A stretch of DNA of 64,000 nucleotides, taken from the NCBI GenBank assembly GCA_021292105.1, contig CM037870.1:3891058-3955057 (forward strand), written 5' to 3'. The position numbers were made by a program, and so were the translations under genes. A model generated the notes under the pieces. That model ran no database searches. It saw only the letters and a list, made by a program, of their open reading frames with translations, and was not told the DNA's origin. Below, piece by piece: positions 9,304 through 50,589 of the stretch. The number at the start of each line of letters is the position of its first letter. Position 1 is the first letter of the stretch. The stretch comes from Anadara kagoshimensis. Lineage: Eukaryota; Mollusca; Bivalvia; Arcoida; Arcidae.

Positions 9304-9532
9304 AATCAAAAACAAACATACTAATCCATGTCCGAATCACAATCCAGAAGCAAAGTAAAATCTTTGGAACTGACAAGTAAGGTTAGGCACGTAAACTTTC
9401 ACCAGGAAAGTGAGACCGGGTGTTCCGGAAGGGTAAGCACCTCCTGTTTAGCTAGCTACACCCGCCTCGTGTGTAATCAAAATTGTGTGAAAGGAACATG
9501 GAACTATGGTACGTCAAATATATCCACAATCC
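9304..9532 (-). mobile_element. PLE 3' tail
   Basis: Read on the minus strand this is the end of the RT frame and the full 3' untranslated region, ending at ATCAAAAACAAACATACTAA (3' terminus). It has moderate differences from the young consensus. Confidence 0.8.
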
Positions 9533-14100: not shown

Positions 14101-14126
14101 TTTTTAGACTTATCCCATCCTATACA
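11123..14126. other. Unassigned AT-rich sequence
   Basis: No gene is recognised. It contains a CA/GT microsatellite near 13059-13084, a TATATA run near 13225-13238 and a short repeated TTCATACTCTCAAC motif at about 13699 and 13723. Confidence 0.4.
13059..13084. repeat. CA microsatellite
   Basis: Short imperfect run of CA dinucleotides with CG interruptions. Confidence 0.9.
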
Positions 14127-14200
14127 CTTGTCAGTTCCAACGTTTTTACTTTGCTTCTGGATTGTGATTCGGACATGGATAAGTATGTTTGTTTTTGATA
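14127..14200 (+). mobile_element. PLE 3' end fragment
   Basis: Only the last roughly 74 bases of the PLE tail are present (TTGTCAGTTCCAACGTTTTT to TGTTTGTTTTTGAT). Confidence 0.8.
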
Positions 14201-14379
14201 TACACAAATGGTATTATTATTAACAAACAATGTATTGCCTTTTAGGTTAACGATATCCAAGGAGATGCTTAGTCCACAAGGAGAGATACAAGCCCAGTGG
14301 TGGTCATTATTACTAAACATTATTTTTTGCTGTACCAGACGAAAACATTCCTAATCACTTTTGTTGCTTTATGTGTTTG

Positions 14380-15240
14380 GTGCTTGTTTTCCTGCAATCA
14401 TTGACTGTAGTCGATTTAAGCTACAAATAACATTTTAACTTTATTTTTAAAATTGTTTGAGAATATGAAATATAGTGAATCGGTATAATTACCGTTTTCA
14501 TAAACAGATTAAAGAAAAGACTATTATCACTTGATGTTATAATCAAAAACAAACTTACTAATCCATATCCGAATCACAATCCAGAAGCAAAGTAAAAATT
14601 TTGGAACTAACAAGTTAGGTTATACACGTGAACTTCCACCAGGGAAGTGAGGCCGGGTGCTCTGGAAGGGTAAACACCTCCTGTTTAGCTAGCTACACCC
14701 GCCACGTGTGTAATCAAAATAGTGTGAAAGGAACATGGAACTATGAGACGTCAAAAATATCGAGGGCAATCCTGGACACAGAGACATCAAACTTGTCAAC
14801 AATACTGTGATGACGGCCATAAAACTTTTTGAGGGCCTTAATAAGCCTAGGCTTATAAAAGATAAATTAAAATCATACATAATTTCTGACTCGATTGAAA
14901 AGTTACAGCCTTAATTTTTATGAGGTTATCGGTGAATTTGTTTTTGTCTTGATTGGTTGTAAACTTTGACTGTTGTCGATCTTTAACTACAAATGTCATA
15001 TAAACTATAATATAAATGTTTGCTAATGTGAAATACAGTGAGTGAGTATAACTACCGTTTTCTTGAACAGATTTAGGAAAATACTGTTATCACTTGATAT
15101 TATAAATGGGTTAATTAACATGATTTCGTAAATTCTAACCCCGATTGAAAACCGCGATAATGATTATGTAGCCTTAATTTTCATGAGTTTTGCGGTGAAT
15201 TAGTTTTTATCTCAAATGGTTGATTAAACACGTAATGTAC
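14380..15240. repeat. Diverged tandem repeat split by a PLE tail
   Basis: The block 14385-14540 (GACTGTAGTCGATTTAAGCT, GAATCGGTATAATTACCG, TATCACTTGATGTTATAA) recurs at 14965-15110. The block at about 14890-14960 recurs at about 15135-15230. The PLE insertion at 14542-14855 interrupts the first block, so the repeat is older than that insertion. Confidence 0.65.
14542..14855 (-). mobile_element. PLE copy, C-terminal RT end plus 3' tail
   Basis: On the minus strand it runs from the codons for KPRLIKALKKFYGRHH through the stop and the whole 3' untranslated region to ATCAAAAACAAAC. It is close to the young consensus. Confidence 0.85.
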
Positions 15241-15469: not shown

Positions 15470-16340
15470 CATATATAATTATATCATCTAGATAGGTTAA
15501 TAGGATTCTCTAAGGTTATACGACCTCATAGTTCAGTTACAAAAGCAGGCATTATAAAATGGTCTCGAAGATGTTTTAGGCATTCAATCCTAACTAAATT
15601 TGTATAACATATACACCAGTTTCAATTTTTCAGCACTAGACGGCCTTTTCGGAATACAATTCCTTATCAGAAGTGCTTGGACGAAAATTATGAAAAAAAA
15701 CTGCTTTAAAATGTTAAAAAGATACCCAAAGGACGAAATTATATTTTATATTAAATATTAAGTTGAGGGAGTACTTTGCCTGAGGAAGTATACCTTTGTT
15801 TCTTTGTATATAATAACAGCAGCTACCAGCTTACTCTATATGATAACACAGTGACGCTACAAAAAGTAAGTCTTATAAGACAGAATCTACATGTAGGTCG
15901 TTATATACAATGAATGGAATTTGAATTGAAACCTTATTTATCAAGAATAGAACAAGCCCGTTTTAGGCTTTCAGCTCCAACTACTTTTGTATACAAAAAT
16001 ATCATCTACTAGATATGTTATAAGAACACATAGTGCAGCAGCTACAAAAAAGCCTTATAAGACGCATAATCTACAAGTAGCTCGTTCCATTCAATGAATC
16101 CAATTTAAATTCAGAAACTTTAAAAATAGAGCAAGTCTTGTATATAATATCATCTAAATATGTTATACGAATACATAGTGTAGCTACAAAAGGGGGACTT
16201 ATAAGACAGAGAATCTATAAGATCGCGTGTTGTCAACGAGATGATTAGGATAAAAAGCAATCGAATATAATAGAAAGGAAATTAGTTTACAATATGCCAT
16301 CATACATTTAGATGTGTTATCCTCAATGATTGATTGCATC
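15470..16340. repeat. Degenerate tandem repeat
   Basis: Variants of ATATCATCTA..ATATGTTATA with ACATAGTG..AGCTACAAAA and CTTATAAGACAGA recur at about 15480, 15845, 16003 and 16147. Spacing is uneven at about 145-190 bases or multiples. A decayed hammerhead module (15610-15790) lies inside. Confidence 0.55.
15612..15790 (-). ncRNA. Decayed hammerhead ribozyme module
   Basis: The minus strand carries AGCACTT, CTGATAA, the GGAATTGTATTCC stem, GAAAAGGCCGTC and TAGTGCT at 15625-15672, preceded on that strand by the module's ACTCCCTC-type block. The core differs from the CTGATGA consensus, so self-cleavage is not expected. Confidence 0.65.
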
Positions 16341-17097: not shown

Positions 17098-17235
17098 ACT
17101 GAGCCGATATCTCTGCTGGTGGCTGGTGCCGCGAGGATATCACAAACCCAGAAGGCAATAATTTCGTATTGTCAAAAATATACTATAATTGTCTAAATTT
17201 CCTGCAAGGTAAAATTTGAAATTTCACAAAAACTA

Positions 17236-17308
17236 AGGTCAGTTCCAAAGTTTTTACTTTGCTTCTGGATTGTGATTCGGAAATGGATAAGTATGTTTGT
17301 TTTTGAGT
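17236..17308 (+). mobile_element. PLE 3' end fragment
   Basis: The last roughly 70 bases of the PLE tail end at TGTTTGTTTTTGA. Its second half (from 17261) is included in the 1003-bp duplication and reappears at 18264-18310. Confidence 0.8.
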
Positions 17309-17390
17309 ATACTCCCTCATGCAAAGTATTTCCTTAGCTTATTTTGGTCCTTTGAGGAGCTTTTCAACATCTTTTAAATAATTTTGGTCC

Positions 17391-17437
17391 AAGCACTACT
17401 GATGAGGAATTGTATTCCGAAACGGCCGTCTAGTGCT
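17391..17437 (+). ncRNA. Hammerhead ribozyme with complete consensus core
   Basis: The order of parts matches a type I hammerhead with a minimal stem III. Stem I strand AGCACTA is at 17392-17398, CTGATGA at 17399-17405, stem II GGAAT/ATTCC with loop TGT at 17406-17418, GAA at 17419-17421, short stem III ACGGCCGT at 17422-17429 and cleavage-site C at 17430. The matching stem I strand TAGTGCT is at 17431-17437. Self-cleavage is predicted after 17430. Hammerheads with short stem III are known in Penelope-like elements and in animal retrozymes. Activity is inferred from sequence only. Confidence 0.88.
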
Positions 17438-17717
17438 GTAAATATAAAACTGGTATAATGTGTAATTTAAACTCCTGAGCCGATATCTCTGCTGGTGGCT
17501 GGTGCCCAGAGGATATCACAAACTCAGTAGGCAATAATTTCCTATTATTGTCAGAAATATACTAAATTTCCTGCAAGTTAAAATTTAAAAATTTCTCAAA
17601 AACTAAGGTATACTCCCTCATGCAAAGTATTTCCTTAGCTTAATTTAGTAAAATATATTTTGGTCCTTTGAGTAGCTTTTCATCTTCAAAATAATTTTGG
17701 TTTCCTAATTTTGGTCC

Positions 17718-17765
17718 AAGCACTTCTGATTAGGAATTGTATTCCGAAACGGCCGCCTAGTGCTG
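17718..17765 (+). ncRNA. Decayed hammerhead ribozyme
   Basis: Same layout as the locus 327 bases upstream, but the core reads CTGATTA and the cleavage triplet reads GCC, so it is probably inactive. Stem II and the AGCACT/AGTGCT arms remain. Confidence 0.75.
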
Positions 17766-17798
17766 TAAATATAAAACTGGTATAATATGTAATACTAC

Positions 17799-17935
17799 GG
17801 TATGATAGAGCATGTTCCCAATAATGTAGTCTTATACAACAAAGCAGGCTAGCTATCGTTGACTCAATAATACTGCTTATCCTAATCTTCAAAAAGTTTT
17901 ATGGTCATCATCACAATATCGTGTTCAACTTAATT
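17799..17935 (+). mobile_element. Decayed PLE RT C-terminal fragment
   Basis: GGTATGATAGAGCATGTTCC and AAAAAGTTTTATGGTCATCA correspond to the RT stretch encoding RYGRACSHYGDF...KKFYGRHH, with small indels. It is repeated at 18802-18938. It directly follows the second hammerhead locus, which supports a PLE origin for the ribozyme module. Confidence 0.65.
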
Positions 17936-17983
17936 TGCCAGGTTTCAAATTTGTTATCTTGTTTTTTGGATTAATATTTTTAC

Positions 17984-18241
17984 ATGGACTGGTTTGTTTT
18001 TCGGATGACATTAAATTATCAGGTTCACTTAAATCATACTAAATCTATATTCCTAAAACAATTTGAAATATTAATATACAAAATTAATAAACTTACTTTA
18101 TATTACTTTCATAAACACATTTTTGACGTAAAAAGAGAAGCTGAAAAAAGATATGCAGGTTATCTTTTATACGCACAAAGCAGATCAAAGGAGTACTCGC
18201 GTTCTAAGTTTGTAATCATACGAAGTTTAGAGGGTATATAG
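17984..18241 (+). CDS. Unrecognised 85-codon frame, duplicated at 18987-19244
   Basis: The frame is basic and rich in aromatic residues, and it is identical in both copies of the duplication simply because the duplication is recent. No family was recognised. It begins close to ACATGGACTGGTTTGTTTTT, which resembles a decayed PLE tail end. It is most likely non-coding. Confidence 0.15.
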   Translation: MDWFVFRMTLNYQVHLNHTKSIFLKQFEILIYKINKLTLYYFHKHIFDVKREAEKRYAGYLLYAQSRSKEYSRSKFVIIRSLEGI

Positions 18242-18393
18242 AAATCATCTCGTTGTCCGAGATGCTTCTGGATTGTGATTCGGAAATGGATAAGTATGCT
18301 TGTTTTTGAGTATACTCCCTCATGCAAAGTATTTCCTTAGCTTATTTTGGTCCTTTGAGGAGCTTTTCAACATCTTTTAAATAATTTTGGTCC

Positions 18394-18440
18394 AAGCACT
18401 ACTGATGAGGAATTGTATTCCGAAACGGCCGTCTAGTGCT
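18394..18440 (+). ncRNA. Hammerhead ribozyme with complete consensus core, copy 2
   Basis: It is identical in core and stems to the locus at 17391-17437, carried by the second copy of the 1003-bp duplication. Predicted cleavage is after 18433. Confidence 0.88.
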
Positions 18441-18720
18441 GTAAATATAAAACTGGTATAATGTGTAATTTAAACTCCTGAGCCGATATCTCTGCTGGTG
18501 GCTGGTGCCCAGAGGATATCACAAACTCAGTAGGCAATAATTTCCTATTATTGTCAGAAATATACTAAATTTCCTGCAAGTTAAAATTTAAAAATTTCTC
18601 AAAAACTAAGGTATACTCCCTCATGCAAAGTATTTCCTTAGCTTAATTTAGTAAAATATATTTTGGTCCTTTGAGTAGCTTTTCATCTTCAAAATATTTT
18701 TGGTTTCCTAATTTTGGTCC

Positions 18721-18768
18721 AAGCACTTCTGATTAGGAATTGTATTCCGAAACGGCCGCCTAGTGCTG
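18721..18768 (+). ncRNA. Decayed hammerhead ribozyme, copy 2
   Basis: It is the duplicate of the decayed locus at 17718-17765, with the same altered core and cleavage triplet. Confidence 0.75.
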
Positions 18769-19547
18769 TAAATATAAAACTGGTATAATATGTAATACTA
18801 CGGTATGATAGAGCATGTTCCCAATAATGTAGTCTTATACAACAAAGCAGGCTAGCTATCGTTGACTCAATAATACTGCTTATCCTAATCTTCAAAAAGT
18901 TTTATGGTCATCATCACAATATCGTGTTCAACTTAATTTGCCAGGTTTCAAATTTGTTATCTTGTTTTTTGGATTAATATTTTTACATGGACTGGTTTGT
19001 TTTTCGGATGACATTAAATTATCAGGTTCACTTAAATCATACTAAATCTATATTCCTAAAACAATTTGAAATATTAATATACAAAATTAATAAACTTACT
19101 TTATATTACTTTCATAAACACATTTTTGACGTAAAAAGAGAAGCTGAAAAAAGATATGCAGGTTATCTTTTATACGCACAAAGCAGATCAAAGGAGTACT
19201 CGCGTTCTAAGTTTGTAATCATACGAAGTTTAGAGGGTATATAGAAATCATCTCGTTGTCCGTCCCAATATCTTATCTTGTCCTCTTCATATCTTCCACG
19301 TCTGTATGGATTTTGATCAAACTTGGTACAAAATGTAATCAAACGTAAGACAATGTGTCGCATACTAAATTCATATGTATAAATCAAAGGTCAAGGTCAG
19401 GAGGTTAATGTTATGGGAGTATTTGGCTCTCAAGAGTTAGTTCTAGTTTCAATAGGAAACGTAAGTGGCAAGTAACATTTTTGCCACACGTCGAAGATCG
19501 TGTTAAAGGTCAGAAAACATATTTTTTGCAGAAAATTATATGGGCGT

Positions 19548-21487: not shown

Positions 21488-21644
21488 ATCAAAAACAAAC
21501 ATACTAATCCATGTCCGACTCGCAATCCAGAAGCAAGGTAAAAACTTTGGAACTGACAAGTTAGGTTAGACACGTGAACTTCCACCAGGGAAGTGAGGCC
21601 GGGTGCTCCGGATGGGTAAGCACCTCCTGTTTAGCTAGCTACAC
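21488..21644 (-). mobile_element. PLE 3' tail
   Basis: Near-consensus tail, truncated in the untranslated region at the TTTAGCTAGCTACAC block. Confidence 0.85.
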
Positions 21645-26685: not shown

Positions 26686-27077
26686 ACTTTACGACTCATT
26701 CTTATTTTGTTTTGGATATGTATTTACATTTTGTTTTTAACGCTAGATCAGTTTCCAAATATTCCCTGGAGTTACATTTGGTAATCGATACATTTGTTTT
26801 GATTGGTATTTTTGTTTTTTATATTTACTAATATTAAACTAGAACTGTTTCTTGCGAGCCACATACCCTGCCCTAACATTTAATGTTTTCCCGCAACCTT
26901 GACCTTTACAATATGACCTTGGTTCAATGTCATGACACCTTTAGGCCATGTAGATTATTCATGTAAAGTTGTTTAACAGTCGTCCAAAGCAGCTATGAGA
27001 TATTGCCCAGACATGGTGATTCACATATATCCACACAAACTAGTTTGCGGAGGATATAATAATCATATCATTTGGTA

Positions 27078-27345
27078 ATCAAAAACAAACATACTAATCC
27101 ATGTCCGAATCACAACCCGGAAGCAATGTAAAAACTTTGGAACTGACAAGTTAGGTTAGACACGTGAACTTCCCCCAGGGAAGGTGAAGCTGGGTGCTCC
27201 GGAAGGGTAAGCTAGCTACACACGCCACGCCCATCAACAACACTGCAATAGCGGCCATTAAACTATTTGAGGGCCTTGACAATCCCAGGCCTGCAACAAC
27301 TCCGAGTCAACAACCCACCCGCAAGCAGCCCGTAAATGTATTGTA
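27078..27345 (-). mobile_element. PLE copy, RT C-terminal end and 3' tail
   Basis: The 3' terminus and tail are close to consensus, followed on the minus strand by a decayed stretch of the RT C-terminus (GAGGGCCTTGACAATCCCAG region). Some internal untranslated sequence is missing. Confidence 0.75.
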
Positions 27346-28532: not shown

Positions 28533-31500
28533 ATCTTTTCTACAATTGACACATTATAAAAACTCCATTCTATTGAATCTTTACAATAATGTTATTGTTG
28601 CCCATGGGCAATGGTCGATTTCAAAATACACGGTGAACTGCGAACGACTGGCTCACTTATTTGTATAAAACATTCAGGGATTAGTTTTTAAGGCATCAAT
28701 GATTGGATTGCAAGTTTTAATTCTCAGACAACCACTCTACCTTGGCATTTCTATTCACAAAAATACTTTAGAAATTATATATTCGTCCTGATTGACGCCC
28801 TCATATTTAGCTGTTGTTTTTTTTTGAATGACAACAACAGGAACTGTAAAATGTTATTTCGAACACGTCATTTTCTTTAATTGATTCTAATTTTAAGAAG
28901 ACCGTAAAAGTATGTAGACAAATTATTTATTAGGTGCTATATGTATCATTATAAACTCGAAATGCGTGTCTATATTTATTTCTCTGTTGTGTTGACATTT
29001 GCAGTCTCCTCGGGTCTCACGTGTCAATGTTGTCTGAATAAATTGGACACACATATCCATTTATTACTAAGTCTCAATCAGTACTGTAATCGTTGCTTTT
29101 TTTTAAATCCTCAGGATCCAATTAATTTTTTATGTTCCTAAGTGGATGACTTCGTGTTCGGATCATGCTTTTGTGTCTATTTTAGAATACACGTGGAGGA
29201 ATTATACTTGTTGGCTTATACCACACGGTGCTGTTTAAGTCTCAATTAGCTCAGTTAATAGTCATTTTGTCCAAAAGCAACGGGTAGCATTAAGCAACAT
29301 TAAAGTCAATACTGACTACCATATATTTTTTAAATGATAACAGACTCTACAAATTATACATTTTTTGTTGAAAACGGCACTAAATGTCTCTTATTCAATT
29401 TTATTTAGGTTCAAGATTGGTAATGATTTTGTATACTTATTTGTATACCGAAGGTTCTTTGTCTTCATATCTAGGTAGCACCGACATTACCAAAACTATA
29501 TCATGCTAGACGTCAGTCTGCAAAAGACCTTCTGATATTTAAATTGGCTTCTGTACATTTAAAAATCCTTTACTTTAGTTCGATTGTTGGAGGACATGTA
29601 CACATGCCATCGTATGAAATTAGGTAGTGGCTTCTCTCTGGTATGAGAAAAAGTGCTGTTAAAGCACCGAATGCTAAGCTTTTGAAATTATCCAGTCATA
29701 AGATACCAGCTTAAGACTACAGATATCAATCAATAGTAATCAACGTATAAAGGCAGATTGAAATCTATATATTTCTATTTTTCAGTAGTCTTTATTCCTA
29801 TTCACTATGCTGGTAACGCATAGCCGGGCAGATTTTGTATACGACCATAACACATTTGTGGATCTTGATTAGATTAGGTTTGCATTGGCAATGTGTTAAC
29901 AATTAATTTGTAAAATAAAAATTGTATAATATGTAATTAACATCTTGCTTCGTGTTAGAAGTTCGGATTCTTGTTAGTTTTTGATGTATCAATTTGTTTA
30001 CAGGGTGTGTGGTTGTTCATTTTGTGCACTACACGTACGCTCGGATCACATCTGAAAAAATACATTTTCTAGTCAAGTGTTGATGACGATGTTTCTGTTA
30101 ACAGAGATAAACCAGTTTAAATTTAAATGACATGTCTATAGTATATTAGTTATAGTTAGTACAAAAATGGTGTACAGTTTGTGCCTATTGGTATACCAAT
30201 TGTTTGTTGGAAATTAATATTACCAAATACAGCAAATATTTTGTCGATAAAAAACATTTAATTGAAAGTATATTCTTAGGAGTCACATTTATAGTGACTC
30301 AACAAAATAACCAGAATCCCTGTTCAGCATATTATATTTGTGTCTTGGCTTACCGAAAATAATTAAAAAATAAAAAATAAAAATCAGATATCACTATTAC
30401 ACCTTATGTAACTTCATTGTGTAACCTCTTGGCTGTAAAAAGCAAAATACTGTAAAACAATTGTATTCTTCCTTTACCTGACCTACATACATACATTTCT
30501 AAAGTGACGATGATTTTCTCACTGGATTTAATTTTTTTCAATAATGTGTGAAATAGCGTAACCTTTGATATTTTAATGAAATCTTAGATGAGTTTACACA
30601 TTTGTTTCTATTAAATTGCTTTAACATTAAAATTTAAAAGGCGATAGAATTTCGAAAACGAGTACCAGGTGAATAAAACGAAGTAGTCAGTGTAAGCAAT
30701 GTATGCCACAAAATGGTAATCATTACAAATCCGCGTTAAATGTACGTAGTACCTTCAACCTTATGTTTAATCATTGTCAACTAGAGATGAATTTCAAAAT
30801 TTTTTTAAAAATAATTTTATTCCCACGTTAAAGACAAATGGCTTATATCTCACTCGCAGACCGAATTATATTTGAACAATTGTATCAGTATTTTAACAGT
30901 AACCTTATGTATTAGGTAAACATAATCTTTTGGTAGTAATATTTAAACGACAGAATTGGAGTTTGGATCTGAACTACTGTACATTGATGTCATATCTTTA
31001 TGGGGAAAAGATTCATGTATTCCATAACGTATGTGTCAATTACATATTATACCAACTTGAATTTACAACACTAGACCGCCGTCAATTAATTACATTTTCG
31101 TATGCTCCTTACTTTAAATAATAAAAAAAAGCAACTGAAAAACGTGCATTTCGCAATAGCAAAAAACAAAACAAAAACCACAATCACGTTGCATCTAATG
31201 GTTATTACCCTATCCCACTTTGGACGGGCACTTAAACAAATATTCATTGGAAATCGGCTCAAATATCTATTGGAAGAAATCGACAATTATCAATTACTTT
31301 TTCAACCAAATATGGAGCTTGCAAATGGTGAAAACTTATTTGCCAAATTAGCACAATATCTATAATTGACAATGCTTTTTTTGGCTTTCGTTTTCCTGAA
31401 CTGTGTAATTCCTGAATTCACAACTTCATAATACCATGGCACCTAAAAGTGATTATTGTACAAATATTGTATCTATAGCATTGAAAATGCATTGTAGTGG

Positions 31501-35165: not shown

Positions 35166-36457
35166 ATAATGGGCTTATAAATGAGATTGAAAGCAAGTTG
35201 GTATTGATAATGCGTGTAATTTTCTCTAGAGCTAAAAGTGCTCCTCAATGAAAATATACTTTTGCTTGGCTGGCTGCTTGTCATCGGGATTTTGGTAAAA
35301 AATATTGATTCCTCGGCAATTGTCTATCATGTTTGACGGAAATATGGCGTTTATTCGCGTAGAACATGTAAAGTAATAACAGTGTTGATGTTAGTGTGAT
35401 TCAAGTTATTTATCATTTTCCTGGCTTGTGTAATTTTTTCATTTACCAATTGATGTTACAGTGGGGAATATCCTGAGAGGGTTTTGTGTTTAAGGATTGA
35501 ACATCTATTAAAGTATCAGAAACAAGACGAGAATTCATCATTACACTTCTAATTTTATCCTTTTAAACATGAAACATATTAAACTTCCAACGATTATAAA
35601 ACATAAAAATGCTCCCTTTTTATGGTTCCACTTTGAAGATAACATGAATTGGAATAACATGCATTTATATTTTTACCTCTGTGAAGCTGTGTCTGATTTC
35701 CTGTTGTGTTCTCATTCGACGTGCAAGTAACGATTGAAAATTGATATACTATATTTGCAATGAGTTCTGGATCCACACAGAATAGTGATCGGGGGTTACC
35801 CATCCCTGTTTTGTTGTAGGCATGAAAGAAAATGTCTTCTAGGCGTGATATACATAATGTCAATACAGAGACGGGGTAGTTATCAGGGTTATTAAGATAT
35901 GGGCTACTAACTGAATTTCTCTACTGTTGTCAGTCAGTGTGTATATCTGAAAATGAGCTACCGAGAATAATTACCATTATCTTAACATGCATGATTGATC
36001 ATTTTGAATTTGGTGTTAATATAAACGTGCTAAATGGAATACAGTCACGCGATATTATACTTTCATTACATAATCTGAAAAAAAGCCGAAAGTAAATGAG
36101 GGTCAAAAATAAATCTTTATCAAGAAGCTGAATTGATTAGATGTTTATATTTCTGGAAAAATGATTGACAAGCATGACATTAACAACATCACTTAGATGG
36201 TGGGGAGGATAGTGGTCGATTGCGATTTAATATTGGAGGCTACTTTTTATGGCTGGAAGTGAGAGAATCAATCTAATACTACAAATTACTGAATCAATGT
36301 GTACTTGTCGAAATGCATATGTTCAACTGAAGCTAGTTTCAAAAATTTGAATTTGTGTTGTGAACATGGTTTGGTATGTTTCTTTTTGATTTCAGATGTG
36401 TGTTTGTTAATCAGCAAAATCTAATGTACAGCTATTATATATATTTTAAAAATAACA

Positions 36458-37572
36458 TCTTGCTTCTAATACTTTATCTCATGTAAAAAGTATAAAAACA
36501 GTTTATTTTTCTACACTATACACCACAATCCCTCATTCTAAATTGAAAGAACGTCTTAAAGAAATTATTCACTTGTCTTTCTTCTACAAAAACGGTAAGC
36601 CAAGATACAAATATCTGGTGCTGAACAGGGATTCTGGTTATTTTGTCAAGCATCATACGGATTCCAAACAAAAATATACTGAAGATACCATCAACAAAAT
36701 GTTGGAGTTTTTGATAGATAACATATTTGTTGTGTTTGGTAATATAGTTTTTCAGCAAACAATCGGTATACCAATGGGTACAAACTGTGCACCATTGCTT
36801 GCTGATTTGTTTCTTTATTCTTACGAAGCAGAATTTATGCAGAACCTTGTTAAATCTGGAGAGAAAACTGTCGCCAAATCATTCAACTCAACATACAGAT
36901 ACATAGATGACGTTCTGTCTCTTAACAATCCTAAATTTGGAGACTATGTAAATGTCATCTATCCTAGTGAGCTTGAAATAAAAGACACGACTGATTCCTC
37001 AAGTTCTGCTTCATATTTAGACTTATACCTGAATTATGACGCACAAGAAAAGCTACATTTGAAACTTTATGACAAACGTGATGACTTCAATTTTTCTATT
37101 GTCAACTTTCCTTTTTTATGCAGCAATATACCTGGTTCTCCTGCTTATGGTGTATTTGTTTCCCAATTAATACGCTATGGTAGAGCTTGTTCCCACTACG
37201 GGGACTTTGTACAACGAAGTAGGCTGCTTGCAAATAAATTGTTGACTCAGGGATATTGCAAGCCTAGGCTTATCAATGCCCTCAAAAAGTTTTATGGCCG
37301 TCATCACAGTATTGTTGATAAGTTTGATGTCGCTGTGTCCAGGATTGCCTTGGATATATTTGACTTACCATAGTTCCATGTTCCTTTCACACAATTTTTA
37401 TTACACACGTGGCGGGTGCAGCTAGCTAAACAGGAGGTGCTTACCCTTCCAGAGCACCCGGCCTCACTTCCCTGGTGGAAGTTCACGTGTCTAACCTAAC
37501 TTGTCAGTTCCAAAGTTTTTACTTTGCTTCTGGATTGTGATTCGGAAATGGATTAGTATGTTTGTTTTTGAT
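36458..37572 (+). mobile_element. Young 5'-truncated PLE copy
   Basis: This copy starts within the RT gene (TGCTTCTAATACTTTATCTC) and runs without internal loss through the stop codon and the complete 3' untranslated region to TGTTTGTTTTTGAT. It closely matches 42600-43712. It lies between array units 0 and 1 and has no equivalent there, so it inserted after the array formed. Confidence 0.9.
36543..37373 (+). CDS. PLE-type reverse transcriptase, C-terminal part
   Basis: The open frame encodes the palm and C-terminal parts of a reverse transcriptase, which would copy element RNA into DNA at the target. Visible motifs are GIPMGTNCAPLLADL at residues 75-89 and the catalytic YIDD at 120-123, followed by the conserved SYLDLYLNYD, LYDKRDDFNF and KFYGRHHSIVDKF stretches. 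The first codon of the open stretch is TTG rather than ATG, because the 5' part of the gene was lost by truncation. The protein ends about 15 residues after KFDVAVSRIAL. No GIY-YIG endonuclease follows, unlike classical Penelope proteins. The Penelope-like assignment rests on motif style and the linked hammerheads. A non-LTR origin other than PLE is less likely. Confidence 0.8.
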   Translation: MKERLKEIIHLSFFYKNGKPRYKYLVLNRDSGYFVKHHTDSKQKYTEDTINKMLEFLIDNIFVVFGNIVFQQTIGIPMGTNCAPLLADLFLYSYEAEFMQNLVKSGEKTVAKSFNSTYRYIDDVLSLNNPKFGDYVNVIYPSELEIKDTTDSSSSASYLDLYLNYDAQEKLHLKLYDKRDDFNFSIVNFPFLCSNIPGSPAYGVFVSQLIRYGRACSHYGDFVQRSRLLANKLLTQGYCKPRLINALKKFYGRHHSIVDKFDVAVSRIALDIFDLP

Positions 37573-39279
37573 TGTTTATTTTGACATGAACTCGTATGTT
37601 TGTGTTTGACCACTATTTTTGATGTATGTTTTTATGGAAACTACAATAGTTGGCATGGGCGACCAATGAAATAAAAAAAGTCATGCCTACATTCAGAAGA
37701 AGTAATTTCGATATGATATCTGTATCTGACTATCAAAAGATTTGTCTGTTTTGTATGACAAATCGATCGTGTTCTTAATGAAAGAAAAAAGTAAGCTTTA
37801 AGCATCAATTTGTTGGAAAATCCAATATCATTTCAAAAGTTGCTGCTTCATCAGAAAAAAGTTTTACGCTACACTTATTGATATAAATTACCGACAGACG
37901 AAATATACATCTTACACAACATAATGGCGATCTAAAGAAATCAAAGTCTAGCTACAAGCGTGATTATCTAGACCAAATACAAGACTTAAAAATAATACAG
38001 AGTCAGCTTGTGTAAAAATCTGACAATCAAACAGAATTATTAATAGAATGCCGATTATACATTCCAGTCAGTGTAATATCAAAGCATCGGAAAAATGGAT
38101 ATTTATCTGTGAAGTTATCGGCCTCACTTCAATGATGGAAATTCGCGTGATTACCTACATTTTCCAGTTTTAAAAGTTTTTATTTTACTTTAATTGTTGG
38201 AGTGTGTTTTAAACATAGACTGTAATGATTGTTTTTTATTTCAGGAAAGTTTAATTTATTCTAAAAATTACATATCCAATGTTTTTTATTCACTTAATGA
38301 AATCTCGTGTTTGTGTTCAAGCAGAATATTGGGTTTTATTGAACATTATTCATAATCTTTAGTTATATAATTTTTACATTGATGTTTTGAGGATATAATG
38401 GATTTTTTATGAATCTAGAATTGACTTAATTTATTCTTTTTTTTAATTTTTTTAGGTTAAATGATCCAATATGCAATAAAATGTTGTTAAGGCATCTCAA
38501 ATGTTTTATTTGGCTGTCTCATTTCATTTCAAACATAGAATAATATAAAATATTTTAGAGTTAAATATTGACACAACCCTTTATATACAAGGAGGAAGTT
38601 TGTAACTAAAGACATGCACTTTATCATATTTTAAGTGCAATGATATATGAATCAAACGAAAGAAAACTCGTTTGGTTTGATCTAATGCACTTATGAAAAC
38701 TGATTTTTTACTAGATCAAATTGCAAATAGTAGGATATTTTTGTGATTTTGGCCCAACAATGGCTTTAATAACCTTATAATTATTATTTCTTTTTCACAA
38801 TTATTTTGTAACTAATTGGTCCTCTATAACTTCCATAAACTTTTTCTTCTGTTGATGCTATTAGTGTATATTTACATTGCAGCCTCCGATAATGCAAAAG
38901 CGTTTAAAATTAATACATAATAATTTTAAATTATGGCACTGGTAATAAATCAATAAACCCAATTTACACATGGTGTACTGTAAGAATCATTAAAGTAATA
39001 AATCAATTAAACAGTTTATCATCATTAACACTAATGCAATCTGTAAACGCGTCATTAAAGGATGTTGGCTTCTATACTTCTATAGCTACAGTAAATTTGT
39101 GAATAAACAAAATGACAATATCTTTGAATTTGCTGATAGACCATCGTGTTTTTTTATAACAAAATATTATTATTACTAAATTTGTTTTCATTGAAATCAA
39201 TGTATATCATTTTTAAATGAAACAAAGACGATATATAACACTTCGGCAGATGATTTTTGTGTCTTAAGACAACGGTTAG

Positions 39280-40975: not shown

Positions 40976-41011
40976 GGAACACCTAATTTCAAAATCATGG
41001 TGCTGAACATT

Positions 41012-41907
41012 TGATGATAAGGAAATGGGGGTTCTACGCCACCATGCTTTATAATGGGGAAACCTCAATGCTTGAGGTTTGTGTGAGGTTTGTATATACA
41101 CCTATGGGGGATCGCCCGACCGTGAAGTTATCGAGTCTTAACATGCCTGTGTATCGGTTGGGGATTTTCAGTAGCTATTTTTAAACAGGTCTTTTCATTT
41201 AAATGCTCGCTGATTGGGGAATTTAATTTATTCTACCTTTGGAGATTATCTTTGCTAATTAATAGACGTATATACGTTGCATAGCACCATATATTTTACC
41301 GATATTAAGAAGATATTTGATTTTAGTTTTATTCATATGTAGGGACGTTTTTAGGGAAAAAGTCAGTGTGGTCTAATTAGAACTTTTAAAGGATGGAGAT
41401 TTTGCTTTCGCTATGCTAACATATGGGAGACCGTCCGACCGTGACGTTATCGAGTATAAGCTTTAATATTTCACTTCGGTAGATAATCATTTATGTGGTA
41501 TTGATGGTACATGTATTATCTAATTACACTATAATGCAGTGTTTAAATGCAAGTGGATTTCAGGTTTTCAATGAATACGGATATCTCTACATTTATTTTT
41601 AAATCAACTAATATTTAAATGAAAATAAATAAATAAGTTTGATGTATAACCATACATGTTTATACATGAATGAACACGTCTATTTTAAAAGGTTTAAAGC
41701 TATTGTGAAATTACAGGTCGGCATATAGCGTTTCAAGGGAAATAATTTTCGCCTTAGTTTCTTAGCATCACTTGGGGTTTATGTAAAGAAAGACAAACGA
41801 ATATATGTAATCTAGTATTATTTTTTCTTCCTCCGTCAATAGGTCATTATAGGTCGGAGAACATCCTATAATGCCTGTACCTACATTTTAAATATACAGA
41901 GTTTTAG
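41012..41907 (+). repeat. Polinton left terminal inverted repeat
   Basis: The arm begins TGATGATAAGGAAATG and ends in CAGAGTTTTAG. Its reverse complement is the right arm, with only scattered differences seen by eye. Confidence 0.9.
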
Positions 41908-43712
41908 TCCTGAACATCAAGTTCATTTTGTTCTTCAGAGTCCTTATCTTCTGAGGTAGTGCTTACATTATCAGTTCATCGTCTTGCCAATATTCTTCTA
42001 TTAGAAGATGTTGAGCTTGATACCTTATCCGACTGGATAAAGGTTGTTAGATCTTTCGTTAAAACTAGGATTGCCAAACTTAAAGGGTCTATGAGTACTA
42101 AACCGTCTTCAGTACTCAAGGATCCAGAAATCAGGCAATTCTTACAGACATACACAACAAATATGTTGTTGTTCCAGCTGATAAGGCTTCCAACAACATT
42201 ATTCTCGTTTGTAAGAGATTCTACCTTGAATGTCTTATTAAGGAGCTTGGTTTAGATAGTATATCAAATAACCCTGCATATTCTAGAACTAATTTTACCA
42301 AGATGAAGTTCTTTCCAACCATAGGGGAGTTCTCGAGTCTTTTGGTATCAATCTTAAAGAGGAAGATCTTGATCTTCCTTACTTGTATTGGATTCCTAAA
42401 CTCCATAAAAATCCATACAAGGAAAGATATATAGCAGGCTCATCTAAATGTACTACTAAATCATTATCGATAACTCTAACACAAATTTTGACAATCGTCA
42501 AAGATGGTCTTCAGTCTTATTCAGAAAAAGTATATTCTACATCTGGAATCAACCAAATGTGGATTCTAAAAAATTCTAAAGAATTACTTGAACATCTTGC
42601 TGCTTCTAATACTTTATCTCATGTAAAAAGTATAAAAACATTTGATTTTTCTACACTATACACCACAATCCCTCATTCTAAATTGAAAGAACGTCTTAAA
42701 GAAATTATTCACTTGTCTTTCTTCTACAAAAACGGTAAGCCAAGATACAAATATCTGGTGCTGAACAGGGATTCTGGTTATTTTGTCAAGCATCATACGG
42801 ATTCCAAACAAAAATATACTGAAGATACCATCAACAAAATGTTGGAGTTTTTGATAGATAACATATTTGTTGTGTTTGGTAATATAGTATTTCAGCAAAC
42901 AATCGGTATACCAATGGGTACAAACTGTGCACCATTGCTTGCTGATTTGTTTCTTTATTCTTACGAAGCAGAATTTATGCAGAACCTTGTTAAATCTGGA
43001 GAGAAAACTGTCGCCAAATCATTCAACTCAACATACAGATACATAGATGACGTTTCTGTCTCTTAACAATCCTAAATTTGGAGACTATGTAAATGTCATC
43101 TATCCTAGTGAGCTTGAAATAAAAGACACGACTGATTCCTCAAGTTCTGCTTCATATTTAGACTTATACCTGAATTATGACGCACAAGAAAGGCTACATT
43201 TGAAACTTTATGACAAACGTGATGACTTCAATTTTTCTATTGTCAACTTTCCTTTTTATGCAGCAATATACCTGCTTCTCCTGCTTATGGTGTATTTGTT
43301 TCCCAATTAATACGCTATGGTAGAGCTTGTTCCCACTACGGGGACTTTGTACAACGAAGTAGGCTGCTTGCAAATAAATTGTTGACTCAGGGATATTGCA
43401 AGCCTAGGCTTATCAAGGCCCTCAAAAAGTTTTATGGCCGTCATCACAGTATTGTTGATAAGTTTGATGTCTCTGTGTCCAGGATTGCCTTGGATATATT
43501 TGACGTCTCATAGTTCCATGTTCCTTTCACACAATTTTGATTACACACGTGACGGGTGTAGCTAGCTAAACAGGAGGTGCTTACCCTTCCGGAGCACCCG
43601 GCCTCACTTCCCTGGTGGAAGTTCACGTGTCTAACCTAACTTGTCAGTTCCAAAGTTTTTACTTTGCTTCTGGATTGTGATTCGGAAATGGATAAGTATG
43701 TTTGTTTTTGAT
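41908..43712 (+). mobile_element. Longest PLE copy, nested in the Polinton
   Basis: This 1.8-kb copy covers the upstream part of the RT protein region (about 41960-42400, including the DKASNNII-type stretch in another frame), the main RT domain and the entire 3' untranslated region to TGTTTGTTTTTGAT. It is disrupted by at least two small indels relative to the other copies. Its 5' edge sits exactly at the inner edge of the Polinton left arm, and its 3' edge cuts the Polinton ATPase gene. Some Polinton DNA was probably lost between them. High similarity to 36458-37572 and 55515-56226 indicates recent activity. Confidence 0.88.
42383..43066 (+). pseudogene. PLE-type reverse transcriptase, N-terminal and palm part
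   Basis: The frame includes YWIPKLHKNPYKERYIAGSS (finger region typical of this RT group), FDFSTLYTTIPH (RT motif with the first catalytic aspartate), GIPMGTNCAPLLADL and YRYIDD. The frame is then lost by a one-base length difference from the copies at 36458 and 55515; the rest of the protein lies in the frame at 43047-43310. Translation here starts at a TTG, and no ATG start was identified. It is a retrotransposon pseudogene. Confidence 0.82.
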
Positions 43713-45056
43713 ATGTCTATATTTCCGAATTGTCATACGGATGGCCTTCTTCCACTCATATCCTTGATCAATAAGTTCGTACACTTTATTCATGATTTTG
43801 GTATGTAGTTTTCCGTGCTTTAACTGCATGGTATTTAAAATCAGTTCGGTGTATTTGTTTAAAAAGATAGGAATGTCGCTATCCTTCATAGATTCCTCAG
43901 CTTTCAATTCGGCTTTTTTGTCGGATAAACCTTGCTTTCTATATCCATAATATTTCTTCTGCCATTCACACTCGGATTCTGATTTTACTGTTTTTCTTAG
44001 TTTGATAAAAACTTCGTCTTCTTTATCCTCTTTGGTTTTCTTAAAGTCCGATTCTCCCCATTCAGGATCTCTTTTTCTTTTAAGTGGATTTTCTATATTG
44101 TTTGCTGAGCACCAAGACTTGATATGTTGTTGTAGTGACGAGAGATCTGCAAAAATTATACCACAATCCTCACAATAAGGCATCTCTTCCAGATCTGTAT
44201 GCTGTGGAAATAAGGAAGGTTTTTCTGACATATGGCTCATATGCTTGATTTCTTGAGACTGGGGGAAAATGCTGTATCCAGTATTCGATTCTGTTTTAAA
44301 TGTAGGAGTCGGTGTGTTTTCTCTTTGACTTCTTCCTTGTAACTGATAATTTGTTTTAAATTCACTCTCTTTTATACCAGCTGGAGTATTAGAACATTCT
44401 TTATTTGACTGTGGCATTGTTTGATTTGTTAAATCGGTTGATTTTTCGTTAACTGTTCTAAAAGTTGGAGAATTTACCTCGGTTGTAAAAATGTTTTCTC
44501 TCAATCTATTGGTTTCTGATATAGTCGGTTTTAAATCCACTAGTAAAAATCCCCTTTCTTTACTCGTAGCCTTATCAAATTTGTCCATGAATATTTGGCT
44601 TTTTCCGGGATACATTTGTCTGGCTAGCGTCATGATCTGTTGTTTATCAATCGGGTTTTTAAACAGTACTAAATAATGACAGTTCCTTCTCTGAGTCGGG
44701 TCTTTACTAAAGTATAAATTCTGATTTAACACAATGACAGATAAATTTCGATGATGACTCCCTTCTGTAAACAAATCATTAAATCTGATGTCTTTGACTA
44801 AACTGGACATCAAATCATCTATTACAATCAAATTGTTCTGATTTGTATTGATAAAACTGTCTTTGTCTAAATCTATTGGTATCCCTTGTACGAATTCCAC
44901 CTGTGGAGAAACAGAAAACTTAATGACGTCATACAATGGTTGCCATCTTTTGTACAGCCAGATGATTCTTTCAGGCCTGGGTTCAATCATATTTCTTTGT
45001 AGCAGGTCTTTCATTAAATGCGTTTTTCCCGATCCAGTCATACCCGAAATAATCAT
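43713..45056 (-). pseudogene. Polinton packaging-type ATPase (fossil)
   Basis: This is an FtsK/HerA-superfamily ATPase of the kind Polintons and related viruses use for genome packaging. The Walker A motif GMTGSGKT lies at about residues 5-12, and a Walker B-like stretch NLIVIDDLM follows near residue 75. A two-cysteine, histidine zinc-finger-like stretch (YCEDCGIIF...QQHIKSWC) lies near residue 300, and a lysine/glutamate-rich C-terminal region follows. The PLE insertion at 43712 truncates the gene's 3' end; the frame runs on into PLE sequence to 43659. It lies next to the zinc-finger/acidic segment upstream, on the same strand. Confidence 0.85.
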
Positions 45057-45343
45057 AGTGAATGGATGAAGAAATTGAAATGACAGTATAACGTTTTCTC
45101 TACCTCCTCCGCCTCCTCCTCCTCCTCCACCTCCTTCTCCGCCTCCTCCACCTGCTCCTCCGTCGCCTCCTCCTCCTCCTCCGTCGCCTCCTCCTCCTCC
45201 TCTTCCTCCTCTCCTCCTCCTCCTCCAGAGTGTTGATAAAAAGTGGTTGTTGTTTGTGATTGTTTCTGATGTACATTGAGAAAGTGCCTTTTAAGATTAT
45301 CAGCCCTATTCAGTGTTTTGTAACAAAGGTTACATGTAAACAT
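45053..45343 (-). pseudogene. Polinton zinc-finger and acidic segment (fossil)
   Basis: The frame starts MFTCNLCYKTLNRADNLKRH, one C2H2 zinc finger with the usual Cys-x2-Cys and His spacing, followed by a glycine run and a long glutamate-rich stretch. The stretch is encoded by a CTC/CCT repeat at about 45100-45228. It sits immediately upstream of the ATPase segment on the same strand. A zinc finger next to the ATPase is common in Polintons, to my knowledge. The repeat makes this part prone to length change. Confidence 0.7.
45100..45230. repeat. CCT/GGA-rich low-complexity tract
   Basis: Runs of CCTCCT with CCGCCT and CCGTCG variants. On the minus strand they encode the glutamate-rich part of the preceding entry. 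Confidence 0.95.
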
Positions 45344-45415
45344 TTTGTCTCATTAACAATACGTGGTTGAATGACTTACGATATTTTTTTTAGTATATAT
45401 AAATAGATTTTTACA

Positions 45416-45620
45416 TGAAACAAAAACAGCTGTTCTCCTAAATTTTACATTGACTTGAATACAATTTTTACGAAAGCAACAGCTGTTCTTCTACATTTTA
45501 CATTGACTTTAATACAATTTTTACGAAAACAACAGCTGTTCTTCTATATTTTACATTGACTTGAATACAATTTTTATGAAAACAACAGTTGTTCTCCTAA
45601 ATTTAGATTGACTTGTATAA
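45416..45620. repeat. Four-copy 53-bp tandem repeat in the Polinton
   Basis: CAGCTGTTCT recurs at 45427, 45480, 45533 and, as CAGTTGTTCT, at 45586, exactly 53 bases apart, with TTTACATTGACTT between. The array lies in the gap between the minus-strand genes (ending upstream at 45343) and the plus-strand genes (from 45745). It could therefore be a shared control region. That role is inference. Confidence 0.9.
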
Positions 45621-45744
45621 AGTAATAAATATAAAATAAGAATGCTTTATAAAGCATTGTGTATTTAGCATTCAGAGGAGCATTGCGTTACAATAACATT
45701 TTATCCTTATTCACCCACCCGGCACTTGGATATCTTGGATTAAT

Positions 45745-46168
45745 ATGAAGAATGATTATTATATTCTTATAGATAGTGAAGATTCTAAAGCATACTTTCC
45801 ACAAAATACTGCATCTGCTTTTCGTGTATTGTTAGATACGAGATTGGATTTCAAAGGACAATGATATATTGGTTTATGTGAAGTGCAATGTACTAATATA
45901 ACATCTTCAGGAGAAATTTATATATGCAGCAACATTTGTGGTGAAACGTTATTGGCTGGTAAAAAAGAACAACTTAAGAACAATTGTAGTAAAAAAAGAT
46001 AAAGATATAAGTACAGTGTTCACCGCACCGTTTTATTTACCGTTGACGACGTCTACCTGGCAAGACATAGAAATCTATATAAAGGATAAACAAGGACATT
46101 TATCTACACTCATAGGAGGTAGAGTGAGCTTAACACTTCATATAAGAAGATATCCCTTTTTCATTTAA
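45745..46168 (+). pseudogene. Small Polinton protein (fossil, function unknown)
   Basis: The region begins MKNDYYILIDSEDSKAYFPQ and ends with ...RVSLTLHIRRYPFF, just before the next gene. It resembles a small protein I associate with Polintons of invertebrates, but I cannot assign a role. It is broken. It is the first plus-strand gene after the 53-bp repeats. Confidence 0.55.
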
Positions 46169-46170
46169 GT

Positions 46171-46551
46171 ATGGCAGAACTATATGTACCAGATACTAAT
46201 AAATGGATCAAGTTTTTTAGACAATTGAATTCTGGAAAAGTAGATTCTTATCAATATGGCCGAGGGCAAAAAGGAAGTGGCATTGACAATTTCAGTCGCG
46301 GGACTTACATGATTCCAATTGATCCATATATTTCCGAGCATGATAGAACTGAAGATAATTCTAATGATGCCAAAGAACCACTAAAACCGATTATCAAAAT
46401 GGTCTCACCAGTAGCAGCTAATCTTGAGCAGGCTAAAAGTTACTTGAAACAGGAACAAGAACAAGAGGGCGGTGCACGTACCATAGGAATAAGACGAAAA
46501 CCTTCTGACTTTATGGCAGAATTTCAACAGAAAAAGCGCCGAACATACTAA
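46171..46551 (+). CDS. Small Polinton protein, about 126 residues (function unknown)
   Basis: The frame opens with ATG at 46171, three bases after the previous region ends, and stops at the inner edge of the right terminal repeat. Notable features are MAELYVPDTNKWIKFFRQL at the N-terminus, a glycine-rich YGRGQKGSG stretch, YMIPIDPYISEHD, and a basic C-terminus (KKRRTY). It looks like a virion-associated or structural accessory protein of Polintons, but I do not recognise a named family. Confidence 0.6.
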   Translation: MAELYVPDTNKWIKFFRQLNSGKVDSYQYGRGQKGSGIDNFSRGTYMIPIDPYISEHDRTEDNSNDAKEPLKPIIKMVSPVAANLEQAKSYLKQEQEQEGGARTIGIRRKPSDFMAEFQQKKRRTY

Positions 46552-47445
46552 AACTCTGTATATTTAAAATGTAGTGTACAGGCATTATATGGATGTTCTC
46601 CGACCTATAATGACCTATTGACGGAGAAAATAAATACTAGATTACATATATTCGTTTTGTCTTTCTTTACATAAACCCCAAGTGATGCTAAGAAACTAAG
46701 GCGAAATTATTTCCCTTTGAAACGCTATATGACGACCTGTAATTTCACAATAGCTTTAAACAACCTTTTAAAATAGACGTGTTCATTCATGTCTAAACAT
46801 GTATGGTTATACATCAAACTTATTTATTTATTTTTCATTTTAAATATTAGTTGATTTAAAAATAAATGTAGAGATATCCGTATCTCATTGAAAACCTGAA
46901 ATCCACTTGCATTTAAACACTGCATATAGTGTAATTAGATAATACATGTACCATCAATACCACATAAATGATTATCTACCGAAGTGAAATATTAAAGCTT
47001 AATACTCGATAACGTTACGGTCGGACGGTCTCCCATATGTTAGCATAGGAAAGCAAAATCCCCATCCTTTAAAAGTCTAATTAGACCACACTGACTTTTT
47101 CCCTAAAAACGTCCCTACATATGAATAAAACTAAAATCAAATATCTTCTTAATATCGGTAAAATATATGGTGCTATGCAACGTATATACGTCTATTAATT
47201 AGCAAAGATAATCTCCAAAGGTAGAATAAATTAAATTCCCCAATCAGCGAGCATTTAAATGAAAAGACCTGTTTAAAAATAGCTACTGAAAATCCCCAAC
47301 CGATACACAGGCATGTTAAGACTCGATAACTTCACGGTCGGGCGATCCCCCATAGGTGTATATACAAACCTCACACAAACCTCAAGCATTGAGGTTTCCC
47401 CATTATAAAGCATGGTGGCGTAGAACCCCCATTTCCTTATCATCA
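46548..47445 (-). repeat. Polinton right terminal inverted repeat
   Basis: Reverse complement of the left arm. The arm begins within the stop region of the last small gene, so the repeat starts where coding sequence ends. Confidence 0.9.
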
Positions 47446-49150: not shown

Positions 49151-49344
49151 GTTGTGGATTTCTTTACATTTTGTTAAAATAGCAACATTACAAAACATAC
49201 CTAGACTTATTGAAAAGTCCTAGGCAAAACCATAAAATTCAGAAAGCTGTGCGAATGTTTTGTTCATTTTATAGTGTTTTCCTCTTTCGAGGAAAAACTG
49301 TATACATGAACATCAACACAGTATGAAATGTTACCAGACGGTCG

Positions 49345-49515
49345 TCTCGAAATACAATTCTTCATCAGTTGAGCTTGGACTAAAATTGTGAACCCAAAAA
49401 TGTTCTAAAGATGTTGAAAAGATATAAAAAAGACCAAAAATATATATCAAATTTTAGCTAAGGGAATACTTTGCATCACGGAGCATACCTTAGTTTTTGA
49501 AGAATTTAAATTAGA
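49345..49515 (-). ncRNA. Decayed hammerhead ribozyme module
   Basis: The minus strand has CCAAGCTCAACTGATGAAGA, a stem II, CGAGACGACCGTCTGGTAA, and further along the TACTCCCTC-like block. The CTGATGA core is kept, but the GAAA segment and stem I are altered. It is likely inactive. Confidence 0.6.
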
Positions 49516-50589
49516 TTTCAACTAGCAGCAAATGTAGACAATAGTTTATGTTTAACAGATTTGTAAGTTTAAACTTCGATTTTTTAATCATGATAACGCG
49601 TTTAATCTTTGCCATCTTTAAAGTTTTTTACACTGCTTTGGATTTTAGGTTTGGACATGGATTGGTATTTTTGTTGTTGATTGAACATTGACTGGTATCT
49701 TTTATTTACATTTAATATATTTTGAATATAAATACTATTAAAAAAAGAAGTTGCATCAAATTTAATTCGAGAATATCTTTTAATGTAAAAAATAAACATA
49801 CTATCTATGTCTTATTGTTTTGTTGTTGTAGAAAAAATAAGTACTATTATATACACCGAATGTTACTATTTGGTACTGAAGTTAATTAAAAAACGCCCTT
49901 TGAATACTTCCGGCCAATACATAGACGCAGTAATGAAGGTACCGTCTCAATTCAAATAACTTGTTTAGACAATTTTAGACAGAAAATGTATTTTCTTCCA
50001 GTAAATCCAAAATATAACATAGTAATAATTATGAATATTTTTATAAGTCCTCAAGACATTTGTCTTATGAACAATAAAGAAATATTGAATCATCTACAAT
50101 TATATTCGTATAAGACAGTACGGGAATATAGCATTAAACATTAATGAAAAACTTTGGATGTATATCCTATCGCAAGCGTTCACAATTGTGACTTGTATAA
50201 CTGTATATGAATCATTTAAAGTTACGAAAAATTAATGCGTCTAGCACTAGAAATATCGGTAATGGCATTTACACCATAGTTACACCAATGATGCTAACGA
50301 TTTTCTATTGTAGTAGTAATTTCTAAATATATAAATGAATATAAATTTAACCCCAGAGAATATCCTATCTGATCTGGTGTAACATAAAGAAAATCCGAAA
50401 CAAAAAGAAATTGATCGTAAAGTGCGAAAGTTATTATATAACCTAGAAAAAAAGAAAAATTTCGCATACTATAAAATATCGTCATCAGAGATGATGTTGG
50501 AACATTACAAATATATTATCTGCTAATTCCTGTTTTACATTTTCAGTTTTATTGCACGCAAGGCAACGCCATCAAAATGTTATTATTGT

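What the first reader, a model, noticed from the sequence alone, without database searches (positions are those of the whole stretch)
17391..18440. Two hammerhead ribozymes with complete consensus cores
Seen: both loci have a 7-bp stem I (AGCACTA/TAGTGCT), CTGATGA, a 5-bp stem II with a 3-base loop, GAA, a very short stem III (ACGGCCGT) and a GTC cleavage site. Known: hammerheads with minimal stem III occur in Penelope-like elements and animal retrozymes and often act as dimers. Inference: these are self-cleaving RNAs if transcribed, predicted to cut after 17430 and 18433.
Basis: partly seen in the sequence, partly recalled or inferred. Interest (0 to 1): 0.75.

Follow-up and report, generated by a model that had tools for sequence, protein, structure and literature searches.

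The report
Duplicated hammerhead retrozyme in animal genome
The two hammerhead ribozymes are real but are one copy duplicated; they belong to an abundant tiny retroelement (a retrozyme) whose genomic copies nearly all end at one fixed point just past the predicted self-cutting site, as expected if RNA circles were copied into the genome.

Summary
They are not independent: a 1,003-bp tandem duplication (2 differences in 1,000 bp) copied one locus. That locus is a two-unit retrozyme insertion (17099-17793), interrupted by a 67-bp tail of another retroelement; its second unit has a dead core (CTGATTA, GCC site).

The unit (325 or 339 nt, 35% GC, non-coding) is a dispersed family of this animal genome: 2,938 exact copies of the 34-nt core. 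It fits the known metazoan non-LTR retrozymes (Cervera & de la Pena 2020).

New detail: in 33 of 40 copies chosen by a mid-unit sequence, the 3' end lies 35-43 nt past the predicted cleavage site, while 5' ends scatter; 15 of 40 exceed one unit. A self-cleaved linear monomer primed there could give only about 37 nt, so templates were religated circles or uncleaved multimers. This looks like target-primed reverse transcription from a fixed internal site. Cleavage, circular RNA and the partner enzyme are not shown; target-site duplications were not above control. New member of a known kind.

The parts
17099..17793 (+). Two-unit retrozyme insertion: 5' end at unit position 45, 3' end at unit position 36 (positions counted from the base after the cleavage site)
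   Evidence: Alignment to the 325-nt unit of the five-copy array L009
17240..17306 (+). 67-bp insert in unit 1: 3' tail of another retroelement family of the window
   Evidence: Unit 1 and unit 2 align on either side of it; 17238-17306 matches 43643-43711 at 100% and other element tails
17392..17437 (+). Hammerhead, type I, core intact (unit 1); predicted cleavage after 17430
17719..17764 (+). Hammerhead of unit 2, broken: CTGATTA in place of CTGATGA, GCC in place of GTC, stem I mismatch
17260..18259 (+). First copy of the 1,003-bp tandem duplication
   Evidence: 99.8% identical to 18263-19262; two differences in 1,000 bp
18263..19262 (+). Second copy of the tandem duplication; it begins inside the 67-bp insert
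18395..18440 (+). Hammerhead, core intact; duplicate of 17392-17437; predicted cleavage after 18433
18722..18767 (+). Broken hammerhead; duplicate of 17719-17764
15602..15801 (-). Older 5'-truncated retrozyme copy on the other strand; core CTGATAA
22991..23086 (-). Older retrozyme fragment with a decayed hammerhead
31038..31082 (-). Short 5'-truncated fragment that ends at unit position 37
49337..49542 (-). Old retrozyme copy with a decayed hammerhead

Best explanation
The motifs belong to a non-LTR retrozyme: a non-coding unit of 325 or 339 nt with one type I hammerhead. Multimeric transcripts are cut by the hammerheads (inferred), unit-length RNA is closed into a circle by a host ligase (inferred from published retrozymes), and a reverse transcriptase acting in trans starts copying at one internal site about 37 nt downstream of the cleavage site, at AT-rich DNA, reading backwards across the religated junction and sometimes more than once round the circle (the fixed 3' end, scattered 5' ends and more-than-one-unit copies are shown; the circle is inferred). 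The window copy is one such insertion of about two units, later invaded by a 67-bp retroelement tail and then duplicated in tandem with its flank.
For: 2,938 exact copies of the 34-nt core in 1.115 Gb, control with the pattern reversed 0. Arrays with 325- or 339-nt spacing. In 40 elements with both ends in view, from 40 loci picked by a mid-unit pattern, the 3' end falls at unit 33-45 in 33 of 40 and the 5' end in 0 of 40; in loci picked by the hammerhead or its unit, 42 of 50 and 4 of 50. 15 of 40 and 17 of 50 are longer than one unit. Of 10 places picked by the 18-nt 3' end alone, 10 of 10 are retrozyme, with 25 to 242 nt upstream of it; one of them (L102) is a unit-to-unit junction. Units of one array resemble each other: p-distance mean 0.030 in 42 pairs against 0.102 in 6,822 pairs between loci, and 186 of 196 against 18,609 of 27,699 agreements at six columns that vary in the family (the window array is counted twice and L010/L011 are near-duplicates). 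Penelope-like elements with RT and GIY-YIG domains are present.
Against: No expression, cleavage or circular RNA data. Target-site duplications do not exceed shuffled flanks in 41 elements; the one long match (32 nt, L035) lies in a target that is itself repeated. The folded circle of one genomic unit is not unusually stable (z -1.04, 16 of 100 shuffles as low) and the hammerhead fold costs 4.8 kcal/mol there. No compensatory support worth the name: 5 of 1,575 cells. 7 of 40 and 8 of 50 elements end elsewhere. Homogeneous arrays could also come from uncleaved multimers of a homogeneous array or from later amplification; arrays L021 and L084 mix unit lengths.
Confidence: 0.82

Rival explanations
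1. Uncleaved multimeric transcripts, not circles, are the templates; the hammerhead is a passenger or serves another step, and array length is inherited from the source array.
For: A Penelope-like element of Anolis uses unprocessed RNA in vitro and starts internally whether or not its hammerhead works (PMC11167929, parts 1-2 read). Within-array homogeneity would also follow.
Against: Cleaved linear monomers are excluded as main templates for either view, but nothing here separates circles from uncleaved multimers; thousands of exact cores and intact cores in 61 of 100 flank-selected copies suit a working ribozyme in the sources, though the copies carry no covariation that proves it.
Confidence: 0.3
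2. An ordinary satellite DNA spread by unequal exchange or by extrachromosomal DNA circles.
For: Tandem arrays of up to five units in the loci seen; a recent 1-kb tandem duplication in the window.
Against: Dispersed short copies with one fixed end and scattered other ends; DNA-circle reinsertion would scatter both ends.
Confidence: 0.04
3. The repeat is a pseudo-LTR or remnant of a Penelope-like element.
For: Penelope-like elements share type I hammerheads and internal initiation (PMC7229834, PMC11167929) and occur in this genome.
Against: Units repeat head to tail with no open frame; three fetched Penelope-like loci show no stretch matching the unit below E 0.25 and no hammerhead by the descriptor, though none shows a complete upstream region.
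Confidence: 0.05
4. Chance match, not a ribozyme.
For: Rfam score under the gathering threshold; weak folding z-score.
Against: Descriptor control 0.03 per 64 kb; the core is repeated thousands of times in a defined unit.
Confidence: 0.02

Closest known systems
Metazoan non-LTR retrozymes, in particular the mussel Mytilus galloprovincialis (PMC7229834; parts 1-4 of 6 read)
   Same: Type I hammerhead; low GC; non-coding unit of a few hundred bp (mussel 350-390); dispersed tandem copies in the thousands (about 5,000 hammerheads in mussel); co-resident Penelope-like elements. The mussel motif also lacks most of the usual loop contacts; here loop II is only three bases.
   Different: Unit sequence not comparable (no mussel sequence was held). 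The fixed 3' end, 5' truncation and their position relative to the cleavage site were not described in the parts that I read. Circular RNA is shown for mussel, not here.
Penelope-like elements with hammerheads; Poseidon of Anolis (PMC11167929; parts 1-2 of 4 read)
   Same: Reverse transcription starts at an internal site downstream of the hammerhead, at AT-rich DNA; tandem arrangement.
   Different: That element codes for its RT and endonuclease, has two start sites that give a tail of 30-40 bp, and starts 111-118 bp into its ORF with the cut at +26; here one site at about +37 from the cut and no protein.
Plant LTR retrozymes (PMC4918200, search listing only; features as told in PMC7229834)
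   Same: Small non-autonomous element with hammerheads and tandem arrangement.
   Different: Type III hammerhead, about 700 bp, GC over 55%, LTRs, primer binding site and 4-bp target duplications.

Membership tests
Metazoan non-LTR retrozyme | Type I hammerhead with complete core | tested here: met
   (28.1 bits, below gathering 34)
Metazoan non-LTR retrozyme | Unit of about 170-400 nt in tandem copies, dimers to multimers | tested here: met
   325 and 339 nt; 2 to 5 hammerheads per array
Metazoan non-LTR retrozyme | GC under 45% and no coding capacity | tested here: met
   GC 0.351, longest stop-free run 62 codons in three tandem units
Metazoan non-LTR retrozyme | Many dispersed copies in the genome | tested here: met
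   2,938 exact cores; 8,390 exact 18-nt 3' ends, junctions inside arrays included
Metazoan non-LTR retrozyme | Target-site duplications longer than 4 bp, when present | tested here: inconclusive
   No excess over shuffled flanks in 41 elements
Metazoan non-LTR retrozyme | Self-cleavage and abundant circular RNA | not testable with these tools
   Needs RNA or a bench assay
Metazoan non-LTR retrozyme | Co-existence with autonomous Penelope-like elements | tested here: met
   GIY-YIG: 50 matches among 150 scored candidates; three of three translated loci carry GIY-YIG over cut-off, RVT_1 over cut-off in two of three
Metazoan non-LTR retrozyme | Highly self-paired circle | tested here: not met
   z -1.04; 16 of 100 shuffles fold as well. 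A descriptive, not a defining, feature; one genomic unit tested
Penelope-like element | RT plus GIY-YIG open frame within the repeating unit | tested here: not met
   no similarity to three Penelope-like loci
Rfam RF00163 Hammerhead_1 | Score over the gathering threshold | tested here: not met
   28.1 against 34 bits, full model length

The most novel reading that the evidence does not exclude
The start point of reverse transcription lies so close downstream of the hammerhead cut (about 37 nt) that a self-cleaved linear monomer can leave almost nothing, whereas a religated circle gives copies of any length; the layout itself would make this retroelement a circle-only template, and the thousands of genomic copies are then a fossil record of circular RNA being copied into an animal genome by target-primed, rolling-circle reverse transcription.
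Probability: 0.5. Interest if true: 0.62.

Novelty: new member of a known kind. Interest (0 to 1): 0.42.

Why it matters
How animal retrozymes get into genomes, and by whose enzyme, is described as open in the papers read: a review passage says that their repeats show no conserved motif that would point to the autonomous partner (PMC7761336, passages). A sharply defined 3' end gives such a motif, a testable start site for purified Penelope-like or LINE reverse transcriptases, and a way to recognise copies as short as 25 nt. It also shows why the ribozyme and the start site may be placed together.

Tried and rejected
Rfam on the whole genome: 0 matches, but only 73 of 112,716 candidates were scored and none of the 14 control genomes rang, so it says nothing. 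Rfam with E-values on six loci listed no hammerhead although L009, L012 and L013 hold the exact or nearly exact motif: a filter effect, so absence in L059-L061 by that route is worth nothing.

Penelope partner: similarity of the unit to three Penelope-like loci: none below E 0.25; descriptor: no hammerhead in them. Their upstream regions are incomplete (L059 runs into an inverted fragment, L060 starts inside the RT), so the partner is undecided. Ten 3'-end-picked places showed no autonomous element with the same end; ten are few.

Whole-number copies: I expected an excess of copies that start where they end (one full turn). 6 of 75 elements have 5' ends at 28-46 against 4.4 expected: no excess.

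Selection on the ribozyme: in 72 gap-free of 100 flank-picked copies, non-CpG core positions vary at 0.036, stem I 0.045, stem II 0.036, linker 0.059, the two central stem III bases 0.167: core no better kept than stem II. Of one-sided stem changes 53 keep and 103 break the pair. So most copies decay freely.

Other hammerhead families: a looser core pattern has 6,710 places, control 0; the 100 listed look like variants of this family, the rest were not seen.

Sampling limits: the mid-unit sample is 40 of 100 listed places, all on C1, of 1,925; it requires unit positions of about 185-250, which pushes 5' ends upstream and lengths up. The hammerhead-picked loci have a like bias. Elements under 100 nt were dropped (under 120 nt), as were copies cut by a locus end and repeats of the same flank.

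Literature: searches (listings). I found no account of a fixed 3' end of animal retrozymes, but saw in text only PMC7229834 (parts 1-4 of 6), PMC11167929 (parts 1-2 of 4) and passages of PMC7761336; supplements could not be opened.

Full report
What was claimed. Two hammerhead ribozymes with complete cores at 17391-18440. The motifs are there exactly as written and are far above chance (0.03 descriptor hits per 64 kb in 60 simulations). Rfam's type I model covers the motif at 28.1 bits, under its gathering score of 34, when 91 bases are searched; scans of longer stretches did not list it. The predicted fold forms stems I and II but prefers a rival pairing of part of the core over stem III.

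They are one locus. 17260-18259 and 18263-19262 differ at two of 1,000 positions. Each copy holds one intact hammerhead and, 327 bp downstream, one with CTGATTA, a stem I mismatch and GCC at the cleavage site. The duplication begins inside a 67-bp stretch (17240-17306) that interrupts the first unit and equals the 3' tail of another retroelement family present several times in the window (100% to 43643-43711).

The family. The window lies in a 1.115-Gb genome of an animal: 68 matches to the wnt family, none in 14 control genomes. The species is not identified. The unit search scored 40 of 2,775 candidates, all 40 matching. On C19 five units of 325 nt stand head to tail. In 81 loci, the window included, 133 hammerhead-like places form 25 groups of two or more, mostly 325 or 339 nt apart (one group, L036, has an odd spacing of 147). 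Exact copies genome-wide: 2,938 of the 34-nt core, 8,390 of the 18-nt 3' end, unit junctions included, reversed controls 0. In 100 listed copies picked only by the sequences beside the hammerhead, of 3,201, 61 keep the invariant core pattern and 17 the exact 46-mer. The unit is 35% GC and has no frame over 62 codons in three tandem units.

How copies end. Aligned to the unit counted from the predicted cleavage site, copies share one 3' end. In loci picked by a mid-unit pattern that includes neither the hammerhead nor the 3' end, 33 of 40 elements with both ends in view end at 33-45 (seen: 35-43), and 0 of 40 begin there; 13/325 would be expected, binomial 1e-39. In loci picked by the hammerhead or its unit 42 of 50 end there and 4 of 50 begin there. 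The remaining 7 and 8 end at 8-30, 98, 138, 208, 283 or 311. 5' ends are spread over the unit, with no excess at whole turns (6 of 75 against 4.4). 15 of 40 and 17 of 50 are longer than one unit; both samples favour long copies. In 10 places picked only by the 3' end, all carry retrozyme sequence upstream, from 25 to 242 nt; nine are followed by other DNA and one, L102, by the next unit. The window copy itself ends at unit position 36.

What that means. One fixed end and one ragged end is the classical trace of reverse transcription started at the target (established for non-LTR elements and, with an internal start, for a Penelope-like element, PMC11167929). The start lies about 37 nt downstream of the cut. 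A monomer cut by its own hammerhead begins at position 1, so copying from 37 would run off after about 37 nt. Nearly all copies seen run on through position 1 into the hammerhead. Hence their templates were either closed circles or uncleaved multimers. Units within an array come from like sources, which suits repeated turns on one circle but would also follow from multimers of a uniform array. Published retrozymes are abundant as circles (PMC7229834), which tips the balance to circles; this is inference.

What speaks against it or is missing. Target-site duplications are not above shuffled flanks in 41 elements. The circle is not remarkably structured. Stem changes give no useful covariation and the core is no better kept than stem II, so the sequence record does not by itself prove ribozyme function; most copies are simply decaying. 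No RNA data were available.

Partner enzyme. Penelope-like elements with RT and GIY-YIG domains are in the genome (50 matches of 150 scored; three loci translated). None of three fetched loci shows the retrozyme end or a hammerhead, but their upstream parts are incomplete. The partner is open.

Class. By size, tandem order, GC, lack of coding sequence, type I hammerhead and co-resident Penelope-like elements it is a metazoan non-LTR retrozyme; expression as circles could not be tested. It is a new member of a known kind with a mechanistic detail that I did not find in the text read.

Noticed in passing
window 36456-37573, 42293-43712, 55482-56226, 62161-62910 (+); tails at 2141-2212, 9306-9374, 14126-14203, 14538-14611, 21489-21557, 27076-27147: A second, coding retroelement family with an RT-like frame (RVT_1 E 4.9e-6 and 3e-4 in two frames scanned, both under the curated cut-off; 24% identity to a Penelope-like RT of the same genome) is also 5'-truncated to a common 3' tail; that tail is the insert in the retrozyme.
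   Followed up: partly
window 41010-47447: Inverted repeats of about 900 bp, 97% identical (41010-41908 and 46547-47447), enclose a frame at 43659-45290 (-) with matches to Adeno_IVa2 and Pox_A32 packaging ATPases and an RT-element copy; no duplication was seen in the few flanking bases that I printed. Possibly a Polinton- or adintovirus-like element (name recalled).
   Followed up: no
window 45103-45226: CCT triplet array of about 42 copies within the reading frame of the ATPase-like ORF, coding a long glycine-rich run near its start.
   Followed up: no
window 17099-17140 and other units, unit positions 45-97: Each retrozyme unit holds a possible hairpin CTGAG..GATATC..GATATC..CTCAG whose role is unknown; it is paired in the predicted fold of the L009 circle.
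   Followed up: no
L059 1-5501 (G000 C15:54985500-54991000): A Penelope-like ORF of 762 aa faces an inverted copy of its own endonuclease end 3.5 kb away; one search lists other close pairs on opposite strands, such as C3:1658447/1660515 and C15:59520667/59523173.
   Followed up: partly
G000 C14:9.45-9.82 Mb and 10.32-10.62 Mb: wnt gene fragments occur as near-identical sets in two places of C14, which may be a large duplication or an unmerged haplotype in the assembly.
   Followed up: no
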